From an uncultured Lachnospiraceae bacterium (GTDB lineage Bacteria; Bacillota; Clostridia; Lachnospirales; Lachnospiraceae), in assembly GCA_947589455.1 (NCBI GenBank), contig CANQCD010000007.1:1-35204 (forward strand): a DNA stretch of 35,204 bases. The letters run 5' to 3'. Both the position numbers and the translations under genes were made by a program. Shown in pieces: positions 1 through 29,165 of the stretch. Under the pieces are notes generated by a model. The model worked only from the letters and a program-made list of their open reading frames with translations, had not been told where the DNA came from and searched no databases. Numbering within the stretch: the first letter of the stretch is position 1; the number at the start of each line of letters is the position of its first letter.

Positions 1-1
1 G

Positions 2-241
2 GGCGGCTACACTCAGGCCGGAAACGGCTATCAGCCGGGAAGCGGCGCGCAGGGCGGCTACACTCAGGCCGGAAACGGCTATCAGCCGGGAAGCGGCGCG
101 CAAAGCGGCTACACTCAGGCCGGAAACAGTTATCAGCCGGGAAGCGGCGCGCAGGGCGGCTACACCCAGGCCGGAAACGGCTATCAGCCGGGAAGCGGCG
201 CGCAAAGCGGCTACACCCAGGCTGGGAATAACGGCTATCCA
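2..241 (+). repeat. 51-bp in-frame tandem repeat, 4 full copies plus a partial fifth
   Basis: Copies start at 2, 53, 104, 155 and 206 (last one truncated). Each full copy encodes GGYTQAGNGYQPGSGAQ with few changes (G to S at position 1, NG to NS in copy 3). Copies are nearly identical in DNA, including third positions, so the expansion is recent. The unit contains GCCGGAAACGGC, a 4-bp stem with a GAAA loop. The array continues past the left window edge, so the total copy number is unknown. Confidence 0.95.
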
Positions 242-610
242 CAGATGGAAAACGGTCAGTTTCAGCCGGGCGGTTACAATCAATATGGAAATCCGAATGA
301 AGGAAAGGGATTTGCGATCGCAGGCATGATATTAGGCATTCTTTCCGTTGTGTGCTGCTGTTTCCGCATTAATCTGATATTAGGTATCGTTGGTCTTGTG
401 CTTTCTGTCTATACCATCCGTCAGAATAAGCCGGGCAGAAAGATGGCAGTAGCGGGTATCATCTGTTCCGCAGTGGGGCTTTTCCTTTTCCTGTTGTTTT
501 TGTTTTTGGATATCGTCTATGCGGATCAGATCCAGCAATTTATGCGGGAAATCCTATCAGAGATGCAGATGGATGGAGCATACTATGATTCCGATCTATG
601 GGATTTTTAA
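2..610 (+). CDS. DUF4190-type membrane protein with tandem-repeat N-terminal region (5' end outside window)
   Basis: The ORF track starts this gene at an internal ATG (245), but the same frame is open without stop to base 2, so the gene enters from the left edge; 202 residues are visible. Residues 1-80 are a Gly/Tyr/Gln/Asn/Ser-rich stretch of 17-residue repeats (GGYTQAGNGYQPGSGAQ). It is followed by two hydrophobic segments (GFAIAGMILGILSVVCCC and MAVAGIICSAVGLFLFL) separated by a short polar loop, the usual arrangement of DUF4190 proteins, and a short acidic tail ending in SDLWDF. DUF4190 proteins have no established biochemical function; the disordered repeat region probably lies in the cytosol and may mediate protein contacts (inference). 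A terminator follows directly. No start codon or promoter can be assigned here. Confidence 0.8.
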   Translation, partial: GGYTQAGNGYQPGSGAQGGYTQAGNGYQPGSGAQSGYTQAGNSYQPGSGAQGGYTQAGNGYQPGSGAQSGYTQAGNNGYPQMENGQFQPGGYNQYGNPNEGKGFAIAGMILGILSVVCCCFRINLILGIVGLVLSVYTIRQNKPGRKMAVAGIICSAVGLFLFLLFLFLDIVYADQIQQFMREILSEMQMDGAYYDSDLWDF

Positions 611-1684: not shown

Positions 1685-1724
1685 ATACTATAGCGCAATA
1701 GAAAAGATGGAGCAAGGAGGGACT

Positions 1725-3200
1725 ATGGGAAGTTTTCAGGTATACAGCGACTTGGCAGAGAGGACAAACGGAGAATTTTATCTGGGGGTATGCGGTCCGG
1801 TGCGGACAGGGAAATCTACTTTTATCAAGCGGTTTATGGAGCTGCTGGTACTGCCTGGGATTGCAGATGAGAATGACCGCGCAAGAGCCACGGATGAACT
1901 TCCGCAGTCAGCCGACGGAAAAACGATTATGACAACAGAACCGAAATTTATCCCGAAAGAGGCAGTATCGGTAAACTTGTTTGGCGAACATCCGGTCAAG
2001 GTACGGCTGATTGACTGCGTAGGTTATATTGTAAAAGAAGCCGAAGGCATGTTAGAGGAAGAGAACGAAAGAATGGTGATGACGCCGTGGTCAAAGGAGG
2101 CAATGCCTTTTGCACAGGCTGCGGAATTTGGCACCAGAAAGGTGATCCATGAGCATTCAACGATAGGCATCGTAGTGACGACAGACGGGAGCTTCGGAGA
2201 GATTCCGAGAGAGGCATATCTAGACGCCGAGGCGCGGACGATCCAGGAATTAAAAAAGATCGGCAAGCCGTTTGTTGTATTGTTAAATTCCTCCAGACCG
2301 TACAGTGAGGAGACCGCTGCGATCGTTTCAGAGATCAATGAGAAATATGATGTGTCTGCGATGGCGGTAAACTGTAACCAGCTGCGCAGTGAGGATATCC
2401 AAGGCATCATGGAAGGGATCCTTGCCTCGTTTCCTGTCAGGCAGATCGCCTTTCAGCTGCCCAAATGGGTAGAAATGCTCCCAAAAGAGCACTGGCTGAA
2501 GGCAGAGCTGATAGAAAAAGTACGCGGGATTTTAGATAAAATTACCAGGATCAGAGATGTGACGGAAGAGAATATGGCAGTGGACAGCGATTTGATCAGG
2601 CAGTTCCGCATCAGCCGCATGGGGATGGAAAACGGCGTTGTGGAAGTTGACGCGCTGTTTGACGACAGCCGCTACTACCAGATTTTAAGCGAGCTTGTAG
2701 GCACCGGGATCAGCGGCGAGTATGAACTGATCCATCTGTTAAAGGAATATGTAGAAAAGAAAAAAGATATTGAAAAATTCAGCGATGCATGGAATGAGGT
2801 ACGCCGAAAAGGGTATGGAGTCATTACGCCGGGAGTAGATGAGATACTGATCGACGAGCCGGAGCTGATACGCCATGGAAGCAAATATGGCGTAAAAATA
2901 AAAGCAGTCAGCCCGTCAGTCCATCTGATCCAGGCAAATATTGAGACGGAGATCGCGCCGATCGTTGGGACCCAGCAGCAGGCGGAAGATCTGATCCAGT
3001 ACATATCAGGCCAGAACAGCGAGAAAAAAGAATCCATCTGGGACACCAATATTTTTGGAAAAACAGTGCAGCAGCTGGTGGAAGAGGGGATGGACACCAA
3101 AGTAAACCGTCTGACAGATGAAAGCCAGGTAAAGCTTCAGGAGACGATCCAAAAGGTGATCAATGACAGCAATGGCGGACTGGTATGCATCATTATTTAA
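1725..3200 (+). CDS. spoIVA: SpoIVA, stage IV sporulation coat morphogenetic ATPase
   Basis: SpoIVA polymerises around the forespore using ATP and forms the base layer of the spore coat. The product is 491 residues, the normal family length. The diagnostic Walker A GPVRTGKSTFIKRF is at about residues 24-37, with a LIDCVGYIV segment at about 92-100, the SpoIVA-typical middle domain and a C terminus ending GGLVCIII, which in the family contacts the forespore membrane through SpoVM. The start at 1725 (MGSFQVYSDLAERT) is chosen over 1707 because AAGGAGG lies just before it. It is a single gene preceded by a sigma-E-like promoter; no clear terminator separates it from the next promoter. Confidence 0.97.
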   Translation: MGSFQVYSDLAERTNGEFYLGVCGPVRTGKSTFIKRFMELLVLPGIADENDRARATDELPQSADGKTIMTTEPKFIPKEAVSVNLFGEHPVKVRLIDCVGYIVKEAEGMLEEENERMVMTPWSKEAMPFAQAAEFGTRKVIHEHSTIGIVVTTDGSFGEIPREAYLDAEARTIQELKKIGKPFVVLLNSSRPYSEETAAIVSEINEKYDVSAMAVNCNQLRSEDIQGIMEGILASFPVRQIAFQLPKWVEMLPKEHWLKAELIEKVRGILDKITRIRDVTEENMAVDSDLIRQFRISRMGMENGVVEVDALFDDSRYYQILSELVGTGISGEYELIHLLKEYVEKKKDIEKFSDAWNEVRRKGYGVITPGVDEILIDEPELIRHGSKYGVKIKAVSPSVHLIQANIETEIAPIVGTQQQAEDLIQYISGQNSEKKESIWDTNIFGKTVQQLVEEGMDTKVNRLTDESQVKLQETIQKVINDSNGGLVCIII

Positions 3201-3217
3201 AAAATCTTATTTCTATA

Positions 3218-3246
3218 TTGAAAAAATAGTGCAAAAAGCCTATAAT
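3218..3246 (+). promoter_or_regulatory. Sigma-A promoter of the flagellin-like gene
   Basis: TTGAAA, 17-nt spacer, TATAAT, an almost perfect housekeeping promoter. It is not a sigma-D (flagellar) promoter, which would be expected for a true filament gene. Confidence 0.8.
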
Positions 3247-3273: not shown

Positions 3274-3297
3274 TTCGGACAGGAAAGGCAGTCCGAA
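3274..3297 (+). promoter_or_regulatory. Leader hairpin with ACAGGA loop (possible CsrA site)
   Basis: A perfect 7-bp stem TTCGGAC / GTCCGAA presents a 10-nt loop AGGAAAGGCA, so the strand reads GGACAGGAAAGG at the top. It lies in the 5' leader between promoter and ribosome binding site. The ANGGA-in-loop arrangement resembles CsrA sites in flagellin (hag) leaders; no csrA or fliW is visible in this window. Confidence 0.4.
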
Positions 3298-3335
3298 ACT
3301 GTTACCAACAGATAGAGAAATGAGGTGAATGAGTG

Positions 3336-4082
3336 ATGGATATGTCTGTTTCAGCAATGGGAAATCCTTATGAGTCTTATGGCACACCGAGAGTAGAGAA
3401 CAATCCGGCTGATATTTTGATAGCGGAAGAGCAGCTGTCCCAGATAAACGGTTATCAGCAGAATGTCCGGAATGGCGAAGACGGGCAGGGAGTGATCCGG
3501 ACGGCAGACGGAGCGCTTTCCGGGATTGCCGACAGCCTGCAGCGTATGCGGGAGTTAAGCGTCCGTGCATCCAGCTCTGCGTTATATACAAAGGAAGACC
3601 GCAAGATCATGCAGCAGGAGATCAACCAGCTAAAGGAACATATTTCTGATATTGCAAAAAACACGCATTTTAATACGAGGAAGCTTTTGGACGGAAGCAT
3701 GGCGGATCTGCATCTTGCCTTAAATCCGGAGGGCGGCGGATTGTCAATCCAGATGGCAGACGCCACATTGGAAGGCCTTGGGATTGCAGATTATGATGTG
3801 ACAGGTGATTTTGATATCTCTAAGCTGGATGAGGCGATCAAGAGAGTGGGAAACGCAAGGGCGTCTTTGGGGGCGCAGGGCAATGCGCTTGACCACAGTA
3901 TCAGCGTCGGCAGCCTGTCAGCGGAGAACCTGACGGCTTCCTACAGCAGGCTCAGCGATATGGATATCGAAAAATATCTGAGCGAGAAGCAGAAGAGAGA
4001 GATCATGGATCAGTACCGTTATTTTGCGGTCAACAGCCAGCGTCAGCAGAAAGAGAGCATGATACAGAAAATGTTTATGTAA
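3336..4082 (+). CDS. Short divergent flagellin-like protein
   Basis: The 248-residue product contains a flagellin N-terminal-type helix region (residues 24-125: PADILIAEEQLSQI, GVIRTADGALSGIADSLQRMRELSVRA, FNTRKLLDGS) and a flagellin C-terminal-type region (about 160-230: AIKRVGNARASLGAQGNALDH). What differs: the first about 20 residues replace the usual 40-residue D0 helix, and the C terminus (REIMDQYRYFAVNSQRQQKESMIQKMFM) lacks the usual QAxxxMLAQAN...GVLxLL ending that assembles into the filament core. The variable D2/D3 domain is absent. The start at ATG 3336 is preferred over GTG 3333; AGGTG is 8 nt upstream. No other filament or basal-body gene is adjacent. It may be a repurposed or relic flagellin. 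Confidence 0.8.
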   Translation: MDMSVSAMGNPYESYGTPRVENNPADILIAEEQLSQINGYQQNVRNGEDGQGVIRTADGALSGIADSLQRMRELSVRASSSALYTKEDRKIMQQEINQLKEHISDIAKNTHFNTRKLLDGSMADLHLALNPEGGGLSIQMADATLEGLGIADYDVTGDFDISKLDEAIKRVGNARASLGAQGNALDHSISVGSLSAENLTASYSRLSDMDIEKYLSEKQKREIMDQYRYFAVNSQRQQKESMIQKMFM

Positions 4083-4288: not shown

Positions 4289-4317
4289 TTGACAATTATT
4301 AAGCAAGTTGCTATAAT
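4289..4317 (+). promoter_or_regulatory. Perfect-consensus sigma-A promoter for the NlpC/P60 gene
   Basis: TTGACA, 17-nt spacer, TATAAT: both hexamers match consensus exactly, so strong constitutive expression of the downstream hydrolase is expected. Confidence 0.88.
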
Positions 4318-4402: not shown

Positions 4403-5638
4403 ATGAAAAGGAGATGTATGGAAGGGGCGGCAATCGGGCTTACATTAGCAGCTTTCTGCCTTTTTGTACCAAATCCAGGACAGGCTGCCACTGCCAACCT
4501 GCTGGAAGAGAAACCATTGGCAGGCATTACACTTTCTTTAGACCATTACTGCGAGAATGTGATGGAGAATGCCGCAGAGGAGGCAAAGCAGGAAGCGGAA
4601 GAACAGGAGAGCGGTTCTTCGCAGGACACAGACAAAGAGAAAAAGGATAAGAAATCAGAAAAGGAAAAGAAAGAAAGAGAAAAGAAGATCAAGCTGAACT
4701 TAAAATATGATAAGTTAGGCATTGCAAAAGTGGATACATATCTGAATGTCCGTTCAAAGCCCGGTGAGAGCTCCAAGATCATCGGAAAAATGACAAGGAA
4801 TACAGGATGCAATATCTTAAACACCAAAAAGGGCTGGTCAAAGATTGAGTCGGGCAATGTAAAAGGATATGTCAAGACAGAATATCTGATCACTGGCAAA
4901 GAGGCGGAAGCGCGCGCCCTCAAGGTAGCGACACTCCGCGCAGTTGTCAATACGCAGACGTTAAACGTCCGCTATCTTCCAACGACTGAGTCAAGGATTT
5001 ATGACCAGCTGTCAGAGGATGAAGAGTACACCGTTGAGCGCGAGCATTTGTCTAAGGATTCTATCAAAACATATATGGCAAAGCACAGCAGCAAAAAGGA
5101 TACGAACGGTGTTGACTTAGGCGCAATGTACGACGATCTGGAAAATTGGGTCATGCTTTCTGTGGACAGTGAAAAAATGTTTGTCAGCAAAGATTTAGTC
5201 ACGCTGAAATATAAGTTAAACCGTGCAGTTACGATTAAAGAGGAAGCGCATCGCGCCGCATCTTCTTCCGACTCCGGTTCTTCTTCTGTCGCGGGTTCTA
5301 TTGTATCGTATGCGATGCAGTTTTTAGGGAATCCTTATGTGTGGGGCGGCACCAGCCTGACGAATGGCACGGACTGCTCTGGTTTTACGATGGGAATCTA
5401 CAGGCATTTTGGATACAGCCTTCCGAGAGTATCTGCGGCACAGGCGGCGGCGACGCGGACTGTCAGCGCTAGCGACGTCCAGGTTGGCGATTTGTTCTTT
5501 TACGGAAGCGGGAGAGTCAGCCATGTGGCGTTATATATTGGAAACGGACAGATCATCCATGCGAGCAACGCAAGGGATGGAATTAAGATTTCCAGTGCAT
5601 ATTACCGGAAACCGTTAAAGATTGGGCGTGTTATGTGA
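4403..5638 (+). CDS. Secreted SH3-domain NlpC/P60 peptidoglycan hydrolase
   Basis: This is a 411-residue exported cell-wall endopeptidase that probably cuts within the stem peptide. Signal peptide: residues 1-28 (ending PGQAA). Residues about 50-97 form a Glu/Lys/Ser-rich low-complexity segment. Then come two bacterial SH3 domains (about 105-165, motif TYLNVRSKPGESSKIIG; and about 175-265, motif QTLNVRYLPTTES), a Ser-rich linker, and an NlpC/P60 domain at about 295-411. The catalytic Cys is C325 (TDCSGF), with His374 (SHVALYIG) and a second polar residue His386 (IIHASN). GGAG is 7 nt before the start. It has its own strong promoter and a hairpin at its 3' end, so it is monocistronic. Confidence 0.93.
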   Translation: MKRRCMEGAAIGLTLAAFCLFVPNPGQAATANLLEEKPLAGITLSLDHYCENVMENAAEEAKQEAEEQESGSSQDTDKEKKDKKSEKEKKEREKKIKLNLKYDKLGIAKVDTYLNVRSKPGESSKIIGKMTRNTGCNILNTKKGWSKIESGNVKGYVKTEYLITGKEAEARALKVATLRAVVNTQTLNVRYLPTTESRIYDQLSEDEEYTVEREHLSKDSIKTYMAKHSSKKDTNGVDLGAMYDDLENWVMLSVDSEKMFVSKDLVTLKYKLNRAVTIKEEAHRAASSSDSGSSSVAGSIVSYAMQFLGNPYVWGGTSLTNGTDCSGFTMGIYRHFGYSLPRVSAAQAAATRTVSASDVQVGDLFFYGSGRVSHVALYIGNGQIIHASNARDGIKISSAYYRKPLKIGRVM

Positions 5639-5677: not shown

Positions 5678-5708
5678 TATGCAGGGAACATGGCTTCCCT
5701 GCATATTT
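5678..5708 (+). terminator. Perfect 11-bp hairpin after the NlpC/P60 gene (probable terminator)
   Basis: TATGCAGGGAA / TTCCCTGCATA with a 6-nt loop, followed by TTT only; the weak U tract lowers confidence. The ATG that opens the ORF-track entry at 5690 lies inside this hairpin, a reason to reject that start. Confidence 0.6.
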
Positions 5709-5728
5709 GCTGTTGCGAGGAGAGATTG

Positions 5729-7627
5729 ATGGATCATATTGTGATAAAGGTGATAATCGGGATAATCCTTTTGGGGATTTTGTTTGCTGTCAGGGCTTCC
5801 TTTGACAGGATTATCTGCCAAAGGAAAAAAGCAGACAGGATAGAGCAGGAATGGGGGATAGATACCAGAGAGGAATATTCAGATGAGATAAGGAAGAATA
5901 TCGCTTCTTATTATCGCGGCAATCCGGAAGAGGGGCAGATTGACGACATTACCTGGAACGATCTGGATATGGATGCCGTGTTTGCTCTGGTCAACCATAC
6001 GAGGACTTCTCCGGGAGAAGAATATTTGTATTATCTTCTGCGCACGCCGCAGTTTGACCATGCGCCGTTAGATGAGAGGGAGAAGCTGATCCAGAGCTTT
6101 TTAACCCATCCGGAGGAGAGGATGGAATTTGAGATGCTTCTCTATGATATTGGGAAGACAGATAAAATTTCTGTGTTTGAATTGCTCAGCGGGACGAAGG
6201 AATTAAAAAAGATAAAGAGATATCCCCATGTGGCCGCAGCCTGTGTGATGCTTGGCACACTCCTTTCCCTGCCGCTGTCTCCGGCGTCTGCGTTTCTCTT
6301 ATTGTTTGCTGTGATGGGGGTCAACAGTTATTTTTATTACAGGGAAAAGGCAAAGATCATACAAAATATTTCCCTGTTCCATTTTATCCTGGGGATCATC
6401 AAACAGTCGGAAAAACTGGGCAAGATCAGGCTGCCCGGCTGTGAAACGTATTTTGAGAGGCTTAGAGAACTGTCGGGCAGATTTCAGAAATTCTGCAGAT
6501 TCCGCTTTCTTGTCTATGCGGGCGACGGCATCTTTGCCGCTGCATTTGACTCGCTGTTTGACTATATCAGGATCTTATTTCACGTCGATCTGATCAAGTT
6601 CGGGACGATGATCAATGAGGTGCAAAAGTATCAGGCTGAACTGATGGAAATTTACAGGTTGACCGGATATCTGGAAAGTATGCTTGCCGTATCCTCTTTC
6701 CGCGCCAGGTATCCCCAACACGCCGTCCCGGTTTTAGAAAGAAGGCAAAGACCGGGGCTTCGGGCGGAAAATTTGTATCATCCGCTGGTAAATAATCCGG
6801 TGAAAAATACGATGGATACAGAAAAAAGCGTCCTGATCACCGGCTCAAATGCTTCGGGAAAATCTACATTTTTAAAAGCGCTGGCAGTCAATGCGATTTT
6901 TGCCCAGACTATCCATACTGTGCTGGCAGATTGTTTTACCGGAAGTTTTTCCAGGATTTATTCTTCTATGGCGCTGCGGGATAATATCGTTGCGCAGGAG
7001 AGCTATTTTATCGTAGAGATCAAATCCTTAAAAAGGATTTTTAATGCGATTTCTTTTGAGGAAGAGGAGAACAGGCGCGATACGGCGGATGGGGACAGAG
7101 GCGATCCGTTCGATGAGAAAGGGCGCGATGCGGCAGAAGGGGACGGACGCGATCCGCTCGATGAGAAAGGTCGCGATGCGGCAGAAGGGGACGGACGCGA
7201 TCCGCTCGATGAGAAAGGGCGCGATACGGCGGATGGGGACAGAGGCCTTGCGGAAAACGGCACAAAAAAGTGGTTGGATGTGCCGGTTCTGTGCTTTATT
7301 GACGAAATCCTGCGCGGGACAAATACGGTAGAACGCATTGCGGCATCCTCCCAGCTGTTGCAGGAAATTGCAAAAGGGCGGGCGCTGTGTTTTGCCGCAA
7401 CGCATGATATTGAGCTGACCAGACTGCTGGAGGAGAGCTTTGAGAATTATCATTTTGAAGAAGTCCTTTCGGATGGGGACATCTTGTTTGATTATACATT
7501 AAAAAACGGCAGGGCAACGTCAAGAAATGCGATTTCTCTGCTGGAATTGATTGGTTTTGACAAGAAAGTAACAGATCGGGCGCGCCGGCGCGTTGATACT
7601 TTTTTGGAAGAGGGCGTCTGGAAATAA
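5729..7627 (+). CDS. Membrane-anchored MutS-family ATPase with a repeat insertion in the ATPase domain
   Basis: The 632-residue protein has the MutS domain-V ATPase at its C-terminal half: Walker A GSNASGKSTFLK (about 372), Q-loop/signature region ESYFIVEIKSLKRIF (about 430-445), Walker B VLCFIDEILRGTNT (about 520-530), and the H-loop ATHD. It lacks the mismatch-recognition domain I. It carries hydrophobic segments at residues 4-22 (VIKVIIGIILLGILFAV) and about 165-205, so it is probably tethered to the membrane. Such MutS-related proteins are common in Clostridia and their role is not known; classic mismatch repair is unlikely. Start 5729 has AGGAG 6 nt upstream; the track start 5690 lies in a hairpin. 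Odd: a 57-residue charged repeat (450-506) splits the ATPase between Q-loop and Walker B. Confidence 0.82.
   Translation: MDHIVIKVIIGIILLGILFAVRASFDRIICQRKKADRIEQEWGIDTREEYSDEIRKNIASYYRGNPEEGQIDDITWNDLDMDAVFALVNHTRTSPGEEYLYYLLRTPQFDHAPLDEREKLIQSFLTHPEERMEFEMLLYDIGKTDKISVFELLSGTKELKKIKRYPHVAAACVMLGTLLSLPLSPASAFLLLFAVMGVNSYFYYREKAKIIQNISLFHFILGIIKQSEKLGKIRLPGCETYFERLRELSGRFQKFCRFRFLVYAGDGIFAAAFDSLFDYIRILFHVDLIKFGTMINEVQKYQAELMEIYRLTGYLESMLAVSSFRARYPQHAVPVLERRQRPGLRAENLYHPLVNNPVKNTMDTEKSVLITGSNASGKSTFLKALAVNAIFAQTIHTVLADCFTGSFSRIYSSMALRDNIVAQESYFIVEIKSLKRIFNAISFEEEENRRDTADGDRGDPFDEKGRDAAEGDGRDPLDEKGRDAAEGDGRDPLDEKGRDTADGDRGLAENGTKKWLDVPVLCFIDEILRGTNTVERIAASSQLLQEIAKGRALCFAATHDIELTRLLEESFENYHFEEVLSDGDILFDYTLKNGRATSRNAISLLELIGFDKKVTDRARRRVDTFLEEGVWK
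7076..7246 (+). repeat. 48-bp in-frame tandem repeat inside the MutS-like ATPase
   Basis: Three full copies (7076, 7124, 7172) and a 27-bp partial (7220) encode RDAAEGDGRDPLDEKG-type units. The middle two copies are almost base-identical; the outer two share RDTADGDRG. The insertion is hydrophilic and lies in what is normally a short loop, so the fold can tolerate it. All frames stay open through the array, which creates several shadow ORFs on both strands. Confidence 0.95.
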
Positions 7628-14585: not shown

Positions 14586-14780
14586 TTATCAAAAGCCAGA
14601 ACCCGCGTTTGCCACAGCGATCGCACAGCACGAGACATTTTAGAAAGAGCAGATTCTGTTATCAAAAGCCAGAACCCGCGTTTGCCACAGCAATCGCACA
14701 ACACGAGACATTTTAGAAAGAACAGATTCTGTTATCAAAAGCCAGAACCCGCGTTTGTCGCAGTGATCGCACAGCGCGCA
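14586..14780 (+). repeat. 73-bp intergenic tandem repeat (2.7 copies)
   Basis: TTATCAAAAGCCAGAACCCG... starts at 14586, 14659 and 14732; the third copy is cut short near 14780. Copies 1 and 2 differ at only a few positions. Each contains a CGATCGC/CAATCGC core and AGACATTTTAGAAAGA. The array starts directly at the rpsO terminator T tract and stops before the next promoter, filling most of a 525-bp gap. Confidence 0.93.
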
Positions 14781-19315: not shown

Positions 19316-19356
19316 TGGGCGGCTTTCTTATGCCGCCCATTTGGTTTGCTTTTTTA
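19316..19356 (+). terminator. Intrinsic terminator of lon
   Basis: TGGGCGGC / GCCGCCCA (8 bp, 8-nt loop) followed by the T-rich TTTGGTTTGCTTTTTT. Confidence 0.7.
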
Positions 19357-19357
19357 T

Positions 19358-19515
19358 GTCCTGTTATCCAGTGGGGACGATTTTAGGATCATCCGTACGA
19401 TAATGGAACTCTTGCCCTTCTTTCCTATGCCCTGCTATCCAGTGGGGACGATTTTAGGATCATCCGTACGATAATGGAACTCTTGTCCTTCTTTCCTATG
19501 CCCTGATATCAAATG
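19358..19515 (+). repeat. 71-bp tandem repeat (2 copies plus partial) running into the fliK-like stop
   Basis: TATCCAGTGGGGACGATTTT... starts at 19365 and 19436 (period 71, nearly identical). A further partial match (TTTCCTATGCCCTG.TATC) extends across 19490-19510, i.e. over the stop codon and last codons of the minus-strand fliK-like gene, so the unit includes the gene's 3' end. Confidence 0.92.
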
Positions 19516-25798: not shown

Positions 25799-26959
25799 AT
25801 GGCAGAGAAGAGAGATTATTATGAAGTCCTGGGAGTTGGCAGGAATGCCACGGACTCAGAATTAAAATCAGCATACCGGAAGCTTGCAAAAAAATATCAT
25901 CCGGACACCAATCCGGGAGATAAAGAAGCCGAGCAGAAATTTAAAGAAGCGTCAGAGGCTTATGCTGTGTTAAGCGATGCGGATAAACGCCGTCAGTATG
26001 ACCAGTTTGGCCATGCGGCGTTTGAGGGAGGCGCCGGGGGCGCCGGGGGCTTTGACTTTGGCAGCATGGATATGGGCGATATCTTTGGCGATATCTTCGG
26101 CGAGTTTTTTGGCGGCGGCCGTTCCAGGAGCCGGAGCAATGGTCCGATGAAAGGACAGAATATCCGTACATCTGTCAGGATCAGCTTTAAAGAGGCATGT
26201 TTTGGCACGGATAAGGAACTGGATCTGGTGTTAAAAGATGAATGTGCCTCTTGTCATGGGACAGGGGCAAAGGCAGGGACGAAGCCGGAGACATGTTCAA
26301 AATGTGGAGGCAAAGGGCAGGTAGTCTTTACCCAGCAGTCGCTTTTCGGCGTTGTGCGCAATGTGCAGTCGTGTCCAGACTGCCGCGGAACAGGAAAGAT
26401 CATCAAGGAGCGCTGTCCGGATTGTAATGGCTCCGGTTATATCAGCAAAAAGAAGACGATTTCTGTCACAATCCCTGCCGGAATTGACAATGGGCAATGC
26501 GTGCGGATCCGCGATAAGGGAGAGCCGGGGGTAAACGGCGGCGGGAGAGGCGATTTGCTGGTAGAAGTCGTAGTAGCGAACGACCCGATTTTCCGGCGGC
26601 AGGACAGAGATATCTATTCTACCGTCTCCATCACGTATCCAAAAGCCGTGCTGGGCGGTGATATCCGTATCAACACAATTGACGGCAAAGTAGAATATAC
26701 AGTAGCGCCGGGGACACAGACGGATACCAGGATTCGGCTGAAAGGAAAAGGAGTGCCTTCCCTGAGGAACAAACAGATTCGTGGCGACCACTATGTCACG
26801 CTGGTCGTACAGGTGCCGACCAAACTCGACAACAGGCAGAAAGAGCTGTTAGAAGAATTTGATAAGGCAATGTACGGAGAAGAAGAGGAAGACGGCAGCC
26901 AGGAGGACGGCAAAGGAAAGTCACGCGGAGCGAAGCGAGGCAATAAATGGAAAAAATAA
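25799..26959 (+). CDS. dnaJ: Co-chaperone DnaJ (Hsp40)
   Basis: DnaJ stimulates DnaK ATP hydrolysis and delivers substrates. 386 residues: J domain with HPD motif (YHPDTNPGD, about 33), Gly/Phe region ([31 protein letters not shown]), four CxxCxGxG zinc motifs ([32 protein letters not shown]), and C-terminal domains. GGGGA lies 5 nt before ATG 25799; the track start 25724 lies within the upstream hairpin. The last 16 residues ([15 protein letters not shown]) are encoded by the first copy of a 77-bp tandem array, giving an unusual basic tail. Confidence 0.98.
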
Positions 26960-27148
26960 ACGGCGCGGCAGAGCGCTGCGCCAGGGTAAAAGGAAAGTCG
27001 CGCGGAGCGGAGCGAGGCAATAAATGGAAAAAATAACCGGCGCGGCAAAGCGCTGCGCCAGAGTAAAAGGAAAGTCACGCGGAGCGGAGCGAGGCAATAA
27101 ATGAAAAAAATAAACGGCGCGGCAGAGCGCTGCGCCAGGATAAAAGGA
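26912..27148 (+). repeat. 77-bp tandem repeat, 3 copies, starting inside dnaJ
   Basis: Copies start at 26912, 26989 and 27066, with the first bases of a fourth at 27143. Each has GGAAAGTC.CGCGGAGCG.AGCGAGGCAATAAATG and a hairpin GGCGCGGC-AGAGC-GCTGCGCC-type stem. Copy 1 encodes the last 16 codons of DnaJ, including its stop; copies 2 and 3 are non-coding. Confidence 0.95.
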
Positions 27149-27842: not shown

Positions 27843-28034
27843 GATCAAGAACCAGGCTTTTTAATACAGGATTGACACGGGACTAACGTTTTGGGGCAGC
27901 TGCGCCGTCATGCGATATCGATCAAGAACCCGATTTTTGACACAGGATTGACACGGGACTAACGTTTTGGGGCAGCTGCGCCGTTATACGATATCGATCA
28001 AGAACCCGATTTTTAACACAAGATTGACGCAATA
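27843..28034 (+). repeat. 76/77-bp tandem repeat (2.5 copies) upstream of the exporter genes
   Basis: GATCAAGAACC... starts at 27843, 27920 and 27996 (the third is partial). The second half (ATTGACACGGGACTAACGTTTTGGGGCAGCTGCGCCGT) is identical between copies 1 and 2 over more than 35 bp. The array ends just before the exporter promoter, which itself carries TTTTTAACACA, a sequence also found in the repeat. The rest of the 435-bp gap holds only the two divergent promoters. Confidence 0.92.
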
Positions 28035-28944: not shown

Positions 28945-28950
28945 GAAAAA

Positions 28951-29165
28951 GGCGCTTCGCCGGCTCATGTGGCAAGGTGTTTGGCCGGCTCATATGGCAA
29001 GGCGCTTCGCCAGCTCATGCAGCAAGGCGTTTGGCCGGCTCATATGGCAAGACGCTTCGCCAGCTCATGCAGCAAGGTGTTTGGCCGGCTCATATGGCAA
29101 GACGCTTCGCCAGCTCATGCAGCAAGGCGTTTGGCTGGCTTATATGGCAAGACGTTTCGCCGGTT
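28951..29165 (+). repeat. 25-bp alternating tandem repeat (8 units plus partial) between permease and ATPase
   Basis: Eight contiguous 25-bp units start at 28951 and then every 25 bp, alternating two types: GGCGCTTCGCCGGCTCATGTGGCAA-like and GGTGTTTGGCCGGCTCATATGGCAA-like, so the higher-order period is 50 bp (4 copies). There are no unique spacers, ruling out CRISPR. The A-type unit has a GGCG-CTT-CGCC mini-hairpin. All three forward frames stay open, which explains the N-terminal ORF extensions at 28967-29261. Confidence 0.95.

What the first reader, a model, noticed from the sequence alone, without database searches (positions are those of the whole stretch)
3336..4082. Flagellin-like protein lacking the canonical filament-forming ends
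The D1 core is recognisable (GVIRTADGALSGIADSLQRMRELS, ASLGAQGNALDH), but the usual N-terminal D0 helix is replaced by a short unrelated stretch and the C terminus lacks the typical ending. It is driven by a near-consensus sigma-A promoter and sits next to spoIVA, far from any flagellar operon in view. This suggests a repurposed flagellin (secreted effector, cell-surface or intracellular role) rather than a filament subunit.
Basis: partly seen in the sequence, partly recalled or inferred. Interest (0 to 1): 0.6.

Follow-up and report, generated by a model that had tools for sequence, protein, structure and literature searches.

The report
Conserved flagellin relative without filament-forming ends
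A group of flagellated gut bacteria (Lachnospiraceae) carry, besides their normal flagellin, a conserved flagellin-shaped protein that has lost the parts needed to build the flagellar filament and is switched on differently, so it probably does another, flagellum-dependent job outside or inside the cell.

Summary
Window 3336-4082 encodes an intact 248-residue flagellin homologue. Its D1 core is complete, the first ~20 residues of the N-terminal D0 helix are absent, and the C-terminal D0 segment keeps its length but is recoded to a charged helix. It belongs to a monophyletic, single-copy family under purifying selection, found in 27 of 200 sampled Lachnospiraceae genomes, all with the flagellar export gate (27/111 FlhA+ versus 0/89 FlhA-). 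Family genes have left the flagellin circuit: sigma-A-type promoters instead of sigma-28, and no CsrA-type leader hairpin (only the window copy has one, at chance level). The spoIVA neighbour is incidental. In three lineages the gene lies beside a cap-like (FliD-like) protein that has also lost its D0 ends, usually with a CgeB-like glycosyltransferase. Best reading: a non-filament flagellin paralogue, most likely exported through the flagellar apparatus as a soluble or surface glycoprotein. The non-filament part is strong; export is inferred, and the window's own copy has a degenerate export-signal-like stretch. The main rival is a cytoplasmic decoy or co-chaperone acting on FliS or FliW. I found no description of this family in the library searched.

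The parts
3218..3246 (+). sigma-A type promoter TTGAAA-17-TATAAT
   Evidence: the same promoter class is enriched in the family (18 of 41 against 2.3 expected)
3274..3297 (+). leader hairpin TTCGGAC[AGGAAAGGCA]GTCCGAA with GGA in the loop; possibly a CsrA site, possibly chance
   Evidence: z -1.78; the only one among 41 family leaders, 0.4 expected by chance
3323..3327 (+). Shine-Dalgarno-like AGGTG
   Evidence: read from the sequence
3336..4082 (+). D0-less flagellin-like gene, 248 aa
3336..3401 (+). residues 1-22: replacement N-terminus, no N-terminal D0 helix; predicted disordered
   Evidence: (pLDDT below 50 for 1-22)
3405..3959 (+). residues 24-208: D1 core (helices 24-79, 86-109, beta segment, helix 161-208)
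   Evidence: Foldseek to B. subtilis flagellin D1 (5gy2) 1.6 A over 166 columns
3960..4079 (+). residues 209-248: recoded C-terminal D0 segment, charged helix
4184..4210 (+). terminator-like stem-loop; gene is probably monocistronic
1707..3200 (+). spoIVA, neighbour, unrelated
4403..5638 (+). NlpC/P60 peptidase with SH3 domain, neighbour, unrelated

Best explanation
The gene is a flagellin paralogue taken out of filament building. Shown by sequence: a complete D1 domain, loss of the N-terminal D0 helix, a C-terminal D0 segment rewritten as a charged helix, and expression signals separated from the sigma-28/CsrA flagellin circuit. Inferred: without a D0 coiled coil the protein cannot enter the filament core. 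Inferred, less certain: it is made at a housekeeping level, probably glycosylated in at least some species by a CgeB-like enzyme, passed through the flagellar type III export channel, and released as a soluble or surface-bound protein. It may work with a cap-like protein that has likewise lost its D0 ends. Its outside partner (exopolysaccharide, mucus, host surface, another cell) is unknown.
For: Strict tie to flagella: 27/111 FlhA+ versus 0/89 FlhA- genomes, p=2.6e-8. Single copy and clearly separate from ordinary flagellins (283-385 bits against at most 202). Monophyletic on D1 alone. dN/dS 0.03-0.16, ends included. sigma-A promoters in 18 of 41 (2.3 expected) and no sigma-28 excess, whereas canonical flagellins show sigma-28 in 17 of 20 (5.2 expected). 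GGA hairpins in 8 of 20 canonical leaders but 1 of 41 family leaders. AF2 gives an intact D1 and no N-terminal D0. Most members keep the SxGKxINSAADDAAG stretch (26 of 41 by a loose pattern), which corresponds to Salmonella FliC 26-47, a stretch reported to direct export (PMC6337784). It is disordered in the models yet conserved, so it is not kept for the fold. A D0-less FliD-like gene lies beside it in three lineages, with a CgeB-like glycosyltransferase in most of those loci; 24 of 27 family genomes hold the FliD-like gene. Precedents: Vibrio FlaE/FlaF leave through FlhA, are not retained in the filament and bind biofilm polysaccharide (PMC6692518); Campylobacter FlaC is secreted (PMC4863622).
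Against: The window copy and its same-genus relative have degenerate export-signal stretches (SYGTPRVENNPAD; ASLTKSVADDPAG), as do the Butyrivibrio members. The C-terminal residues that contact FliS in solved complexes are replaced (E to A; L-A-Q to Q-K-K), so FliS-guided export is doubtful. Early or constitutive expression is not what a late export substrate usually shows. In most lineages, the window included, the gene stands alone. No secretion, glycosylation or expression data exist. The association with the FliD-like gene inside flagellated genomes is modest (p=0.027).
Confidence: 0.45

Rival explanations
1. A cytoplasmic regulator: a flagellin mimic that stays inside and binds FliW or FliS through its D1 surfaces, tuning CsrA control or chaperone supply, as a decoy or co-chaperone.
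For: D1 surfaces are kept: FliW protects Hag 50-72 and 240-260, and FliS has a D1 contact area (PMC6070490). FliW is in 105 of 200 genomes, near the 111 with FlhA. H. pylori HP1076 is a D1-shaped protein that competes with flagellin for FliS (PMC7248283). sigma-A expression and loss of the export-stretch motif in the window's genus fit an internal role.
Against: FliW also protects Hag 11-34, largely missing here, and the FliS D0-C contact residues are changed. FliW and FliS circuits are near universal in flagellated relatives while this gene is in only a quarter of them. An adjacent glycosyltransferase and cap-like gene are not explained.
Confidence: 0.25
2. A minor structural part of the flagellum: D1-only subunits that sit on the filament surface or at its tip together with the D0-less cap-like protein, for example limiting growth or decorating the filament.
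For: The D1 contact motif LQRIRELSVQA is retained in family and canonical flagellins; a D0-less FliD-like partner is present in 24 of 27 genomes.
Against: Expression is not coupled to sigma-28; no solved filament contains such a subunit; D0 forms the channel wall.
Confidence: 0.15
3. An ordinary filament flagellin with unusual ends, or a wrongly chosen start.
For: Pfam and structure hits are all flagellin.
Against: In-frame stop directly upstream; the same truncation in the whole family; normal flagellins are present in the same genome; no solved flagellin listed has such an N-terminus.
Confidence: 0.05
4. A decaying flagellin gene.
For: The window's copy is among the more divergent at the N-terminus.
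Against: No internal stops in any of 27 genomes; dN/dS 0.03-0.16 between close species; good promoter and ribosome site.
Confidence: 0.02

Closest known systems
Filament flagellins (FliC/Hag/FlaA), e.g. Roseburia hominis filament 9hpz, B. subtilis Hag 5wju
   Same: D1 fold and motifs; top structural and sequence matches
   Different: No N-terminal D0 helix, charged C-terminal D0 segment, FliS contacts changed, sigma-A promoter, no family-wide CsrA-type hairpin
Campylobacter FlaC (PMC4863622) and Vibrio FlaE/FlaF flagellin-homologous proteins (PMC6692518)
   Same: Flagellin relatives outside the filament, in flagellated bacteria; those are exported through the flagellar gate
   Different: Export not tested here; different phyla; whether those proteins keep D0 ends was not tested here
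H. pylori HP1076 (PMC7248283)
   Same: D1-shaped protein without a D0, tied to flagella
   Different: HP1076 is unique to H. pylori, 171 residues and membrane-associated; FliS binding here is untested
Sphingomonas cell-surface flagellin homologue (PDB 2zbi, 3k8v)
   Same: Flagellin fold with an annotated surface location; Foldseek hits
   Different: The solved chains are engineered truncations (N20C20, N20C45); the family here is naturally short and tied to FlhA
FlgL (hook-associated protein 3)
   Same: Same superfamily; TIGR02550 72 bits
   Different: Far below the 127-bit cut-off; the genome has its own FlgL

Membership tests
Filament flagellin | Flagellin_N and Flagellin_C domains | tested here: met
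   Pfam 74.9 and 31.7 bits, both over cut-off, but Flagellin_N only from position 40
Filament flagellin | N-terminal D0 helix | tested here: not met
Filament flagellin | Weakly charged C-terminal D0 helix ending VLxLL | tested here: not met
   Same length, 35% charged, GRAVY -1.16 against -0.12; ends MIQKMFM
Filament flagellin | FliS-contact residues in D0-C | tested here: not met
   contact positions replaced across the family
Filament flagellin | sigma-28 promoter and CsrA-type leader, as in canonical relatives | tested here: not met
   the window has one hairpin that may be chance
Filament flagellin | Incorporation in filaments | not testable with these tools
   needs purified flagella
Secreted non-filament flagellin (FlaC, FlaE/FlaF type) | Flagellin homologue beside normal flagellins in a flagellated genome | tested here: met
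Secreted non-filament flagellin (FlaC, FlaE/FlaF type) | Export-signal-like stretch (FliC 26-47) kept | tested here: inconclusive
   Kept in most members, degenerate in the window's genus and Butyrivibrio
Secreted non-filament flagellin (FlaC, FlaE/FlaF type) | FlhA-dependent secretion | not testable with these tools
   only co-occurrence: 27/111 against 0/89
FlgL | NCBIfam TIGR02550 cut-off | tested here: not met
   71.9 against 127.2 bits
FliS-binding D1 mimic (HP1076 type) | Binds FliS in competition with flagellin | not testable with these tools
   none

The most novel reading that the evidence does not exclude
The D0-less flagellin and the D0-less FliD-like protein, with a small helical protein and a CgeB-like glycosyltransferase, form a second extracellular system of gut Lachnospiraceae: glycosylated axial-protein relatives sent through the flagellar gate that assemble by D1 contacts, or act as free proteins, instead of building a filament.
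Probability: 0.15. Interest if true: 0.85.

Novelty: new variant of a known kind. Interest (0 to 1): 0.55.

Why it matters
Flagellin from Lachnospiraceae is a major target of gut immunity, read through D1 (TLR5 binding) and D0. A natural, conserved D1-only flagellin in these commensals would bear on how they meet TLR5 and on tools that count every Flagellin_N hit as a filament flagellin. It also suggests that the flagellar export gate of gut commensals serves non-motility proteins, which is directly testable in cultured species such as Lachnospira multipara, Petralouisia muris or Butyrivibrio proteoclasticus.

Tried and rejected
spoIVA linkage as a functional clue: rejected, neighbours differ in almost every species. 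CsrA control of the window gene from its leader hairpin: 1 of 41 in the family, at chance level; kept only as a possibility. FliW presence as a predictor of the gene: not useful, near universal in flagellated relatives. Equating it with clade F of the Roseburia/Eubacterium flagellins (sigma-43 promoters): rejected, those are 389-504 aa with normal MVVQHNMQA-type starts (PMC3720852). Identifying the ~125 aa neighbour through Pfam, NCBIfam or PDB profiles: nothing credible. Paper searches for the family: none found in the held library.

Full report
Observation. The reading frame at 3336-4082 is intact, with a ribosome site, a TTGAAA-17-TATAAT promoter at 3218-3246 and an in-frame stop directly upstream of the start, so no longer N-terminus can be hidden. 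The 248-residue protein matches Flagellin_N only from profile position 40 and Flagellin_C over nearly its whole length. Against solved filament flagellins its residue 19 aligns with Hag residue 38 and its alignment ends 3 residues before the end of Hag. The first ~20 residues of D0 are therefore missing, while the C-terminal segment is present in length but recoded: 35% charged, GRAVY -1.16, against means of 15% and -0.12 in 22 canonical flagellins; the family means are 32% and -0.95.

It is a family, not an oddity. A profile of 37 members searched against 200 Lachnospiraceae genomes gave two clearly separate score groups: 27 genomes with exactly one hit at 283-385 bits, and ordinary flagellins at 202 bits or less. 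Members typically start with short sequences such as MSSISGVSSS..YGQLASGKRINSAADDAAGLAIAEK and end with ...SRIEDLDxxKAVSExKKxxxLxxYxxMMQKKxxE.... A tree built only from D1 columns, leaving out the altered ends, groups all 47 members on one side with 100/96 support. One further candidate outside the family Lachnospiraceae (L094, genome G466) also lacks the N-terminal D0 helix and lies among ordinary flagellin genes. Between close species dN/dS is 0.03-0.16, with the altered ends constrained much like D1, so this is not decay.

It is tied to flagella but not to the flagellin circuit. All 27 carriers have FlhA (27/111 FlhA+, 0/89 FlhA-, p=2.6e-8). The genomes are related, so this p-value overstates the independence of the data. 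The window's own genome has normal flagellins, FlgL, FlhA (split by a contig gap), FliD, FliS, FliW and CsrA. Canonical flagellin genes show sigma-28 promoters (17 of 20, 5.2 expected) and GGA-loop hairpins of the CsrA type (8 of 20, 0.3 expected). Family genes show sigma-A promoters (18 of 41, 2.3 expected), no sigma-28 excess (8, 7.1 expected) and a GGA hairpin in 1 of 41, which is the window itself and at chance level. These are consensus matches against shuffles, not mapped promoters.

Structure. AlphaFold2 models of the window protein and of L045 (mean pLDDT 78) show the D1 helices at high confidence, a disordered N-terminus (1-22 or 1-24) and a less certain C-terminal helix. The best Foldseek matches to solved structures are flagellins; the D1 part overlays B. 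subtilis flagellin at 1.6 A over 166 columns. D1 contact residues (LQRxREL, N113, R175, G179, N183) are shared with canonical flagellins, while C-terminal positions that contact FliS in the H. pylori complex are replaced by family-specific residues.

Neighbours. spoIVA is next to the gene only in the window's species among those examined; no neighbour is general. A recurrent set does appear in three lineages (L039-L045/L053/G176; L038; G076): a ~430-residue FliD-like protein that also lacks the N- and C-terminal D0 segments of canonical FliD; in most of these loci a CgeB-like glycosyltransferase with DUF3880 and Glyco_trans_1_2; and, in most except G076, L042 and L045, a ~125-residue helical protein. 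In G192, the window's same-genus relative, the gene is next to the glycosyltransferase. By hand arithmetic, about 0.2 lineages would be expected to have the FliD-like gene within 8 kb by chance. The FliD-like family is wider than the flagellin-like one: 79 of 111 FlhA+ and 0 of 89 FlhA- genomes, confined to Lachnospiraceae in the class sample; 24 of 27 flagellin-like genomes have it, against 55 of 84 other flagellated ones (p=0.027). The window's genome has it at G000:C48:12756-14024, away from the window gene. The ~125-residue protein lies beside the FliD-like gene in several genomes, where a FliT-like chaperone role is my inference only.

Mechanism. Shown: a conserved D0-less flagellin with intact expression signals, kept only in flagellated species and outside the normal flagellin control. 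Inferred from established knowledge: without a D0 coiled coil it cannot be a core filament subunit. Inferred with less certainty: export through the flagellar gate. The stretch before D1 that most members keep matches FliC 26-47, reported to direct export (PMC6337784), and is disordered in the models, so it is not kept for the fold. The glycosyltransferase and cap-like neighbours, and the Vibrio and Campylobacter precedents (PMC6692518, PMC4863622), point the same way. Against it: the stretch is degenerate in the window's genus and in Butyrivibrio, FliS contacts are lost, and the expression class is unusual for a late substrate. The strongest rival is an internal decoy or co-chaperone for FliW or FliS, as with HP1076 (PMC7248283).

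Comparison and novelty. By function it would resemble secreted non-filament flagellins; as a family it fails several defining features of filament flagellins, and no curated NCBIfam subfamily reaches its cut-off. No paper in the held library was found to describe it, though most subscription papers are not held. I rate it a new variant of a known kind. The parallel D0 loss in a flagellin and a cap protein is the more surprising part.

Noticed in passing
L039:6774-8072 (-), L142:4688-6028 (+), L145:14360-15658 (-), L146:4637-5938 (+): A ~430 aa FliD-like family without canonical D0 ends, ending PYxTSxYSGMMFNSYC, in 79 of 111 flagellated and 0 of 89 non-flagellated Lachnospiraceae. The window's own genome also has a canonical 707 aa FliD (L144:361-2484).
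   Followed up: partly
L147:3993-4499 (-), G000 contig C22: A third FliD_C-matching protein in the window's genome, cut by a contig end, also ending without a normal FliD C-terminus (..SNGSLDKYL).
   Followed up: no
L039:5375-5764, L145:2334-2699, L038:9417-9827 (-): A ~125 aa helical protein without Pfam match, often beside the FliD-like gene; possibly its chaperone.
   Followed up: partly
L094 / L184:9443-10201 (genome G466, other family): A D0-less flagellin-like gene inside an array of ordinary flagellin genes; possible intermediate or independent origin.
   Followed up: partly
window 1-610: 5'-open ORF with 51-base tandem repeats (GYTQAGNGYQPGSGAQ) before a membrane-protein-like part.
   Followed up: no
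window 7067-7246: 48-base tandem repeats inside a 645 aa MutS-like ORF (5690-7627), adding a charged repeat inside the ATPase part.
   Followed up: no
window 4289-4317: A perfect sigma-A promoter (TTGACA-17-TATAAT with TG) before the NlpC/P60 gene.
   Followed up: no
window 14586-14775, 19355-19510, 26912-27148, 27843-28028, 28949-29163: Several short tandem-repeat arrays with 71-77 (or 25/50) base units, some between genes; seems many for 35 kb.
   Followed up: no
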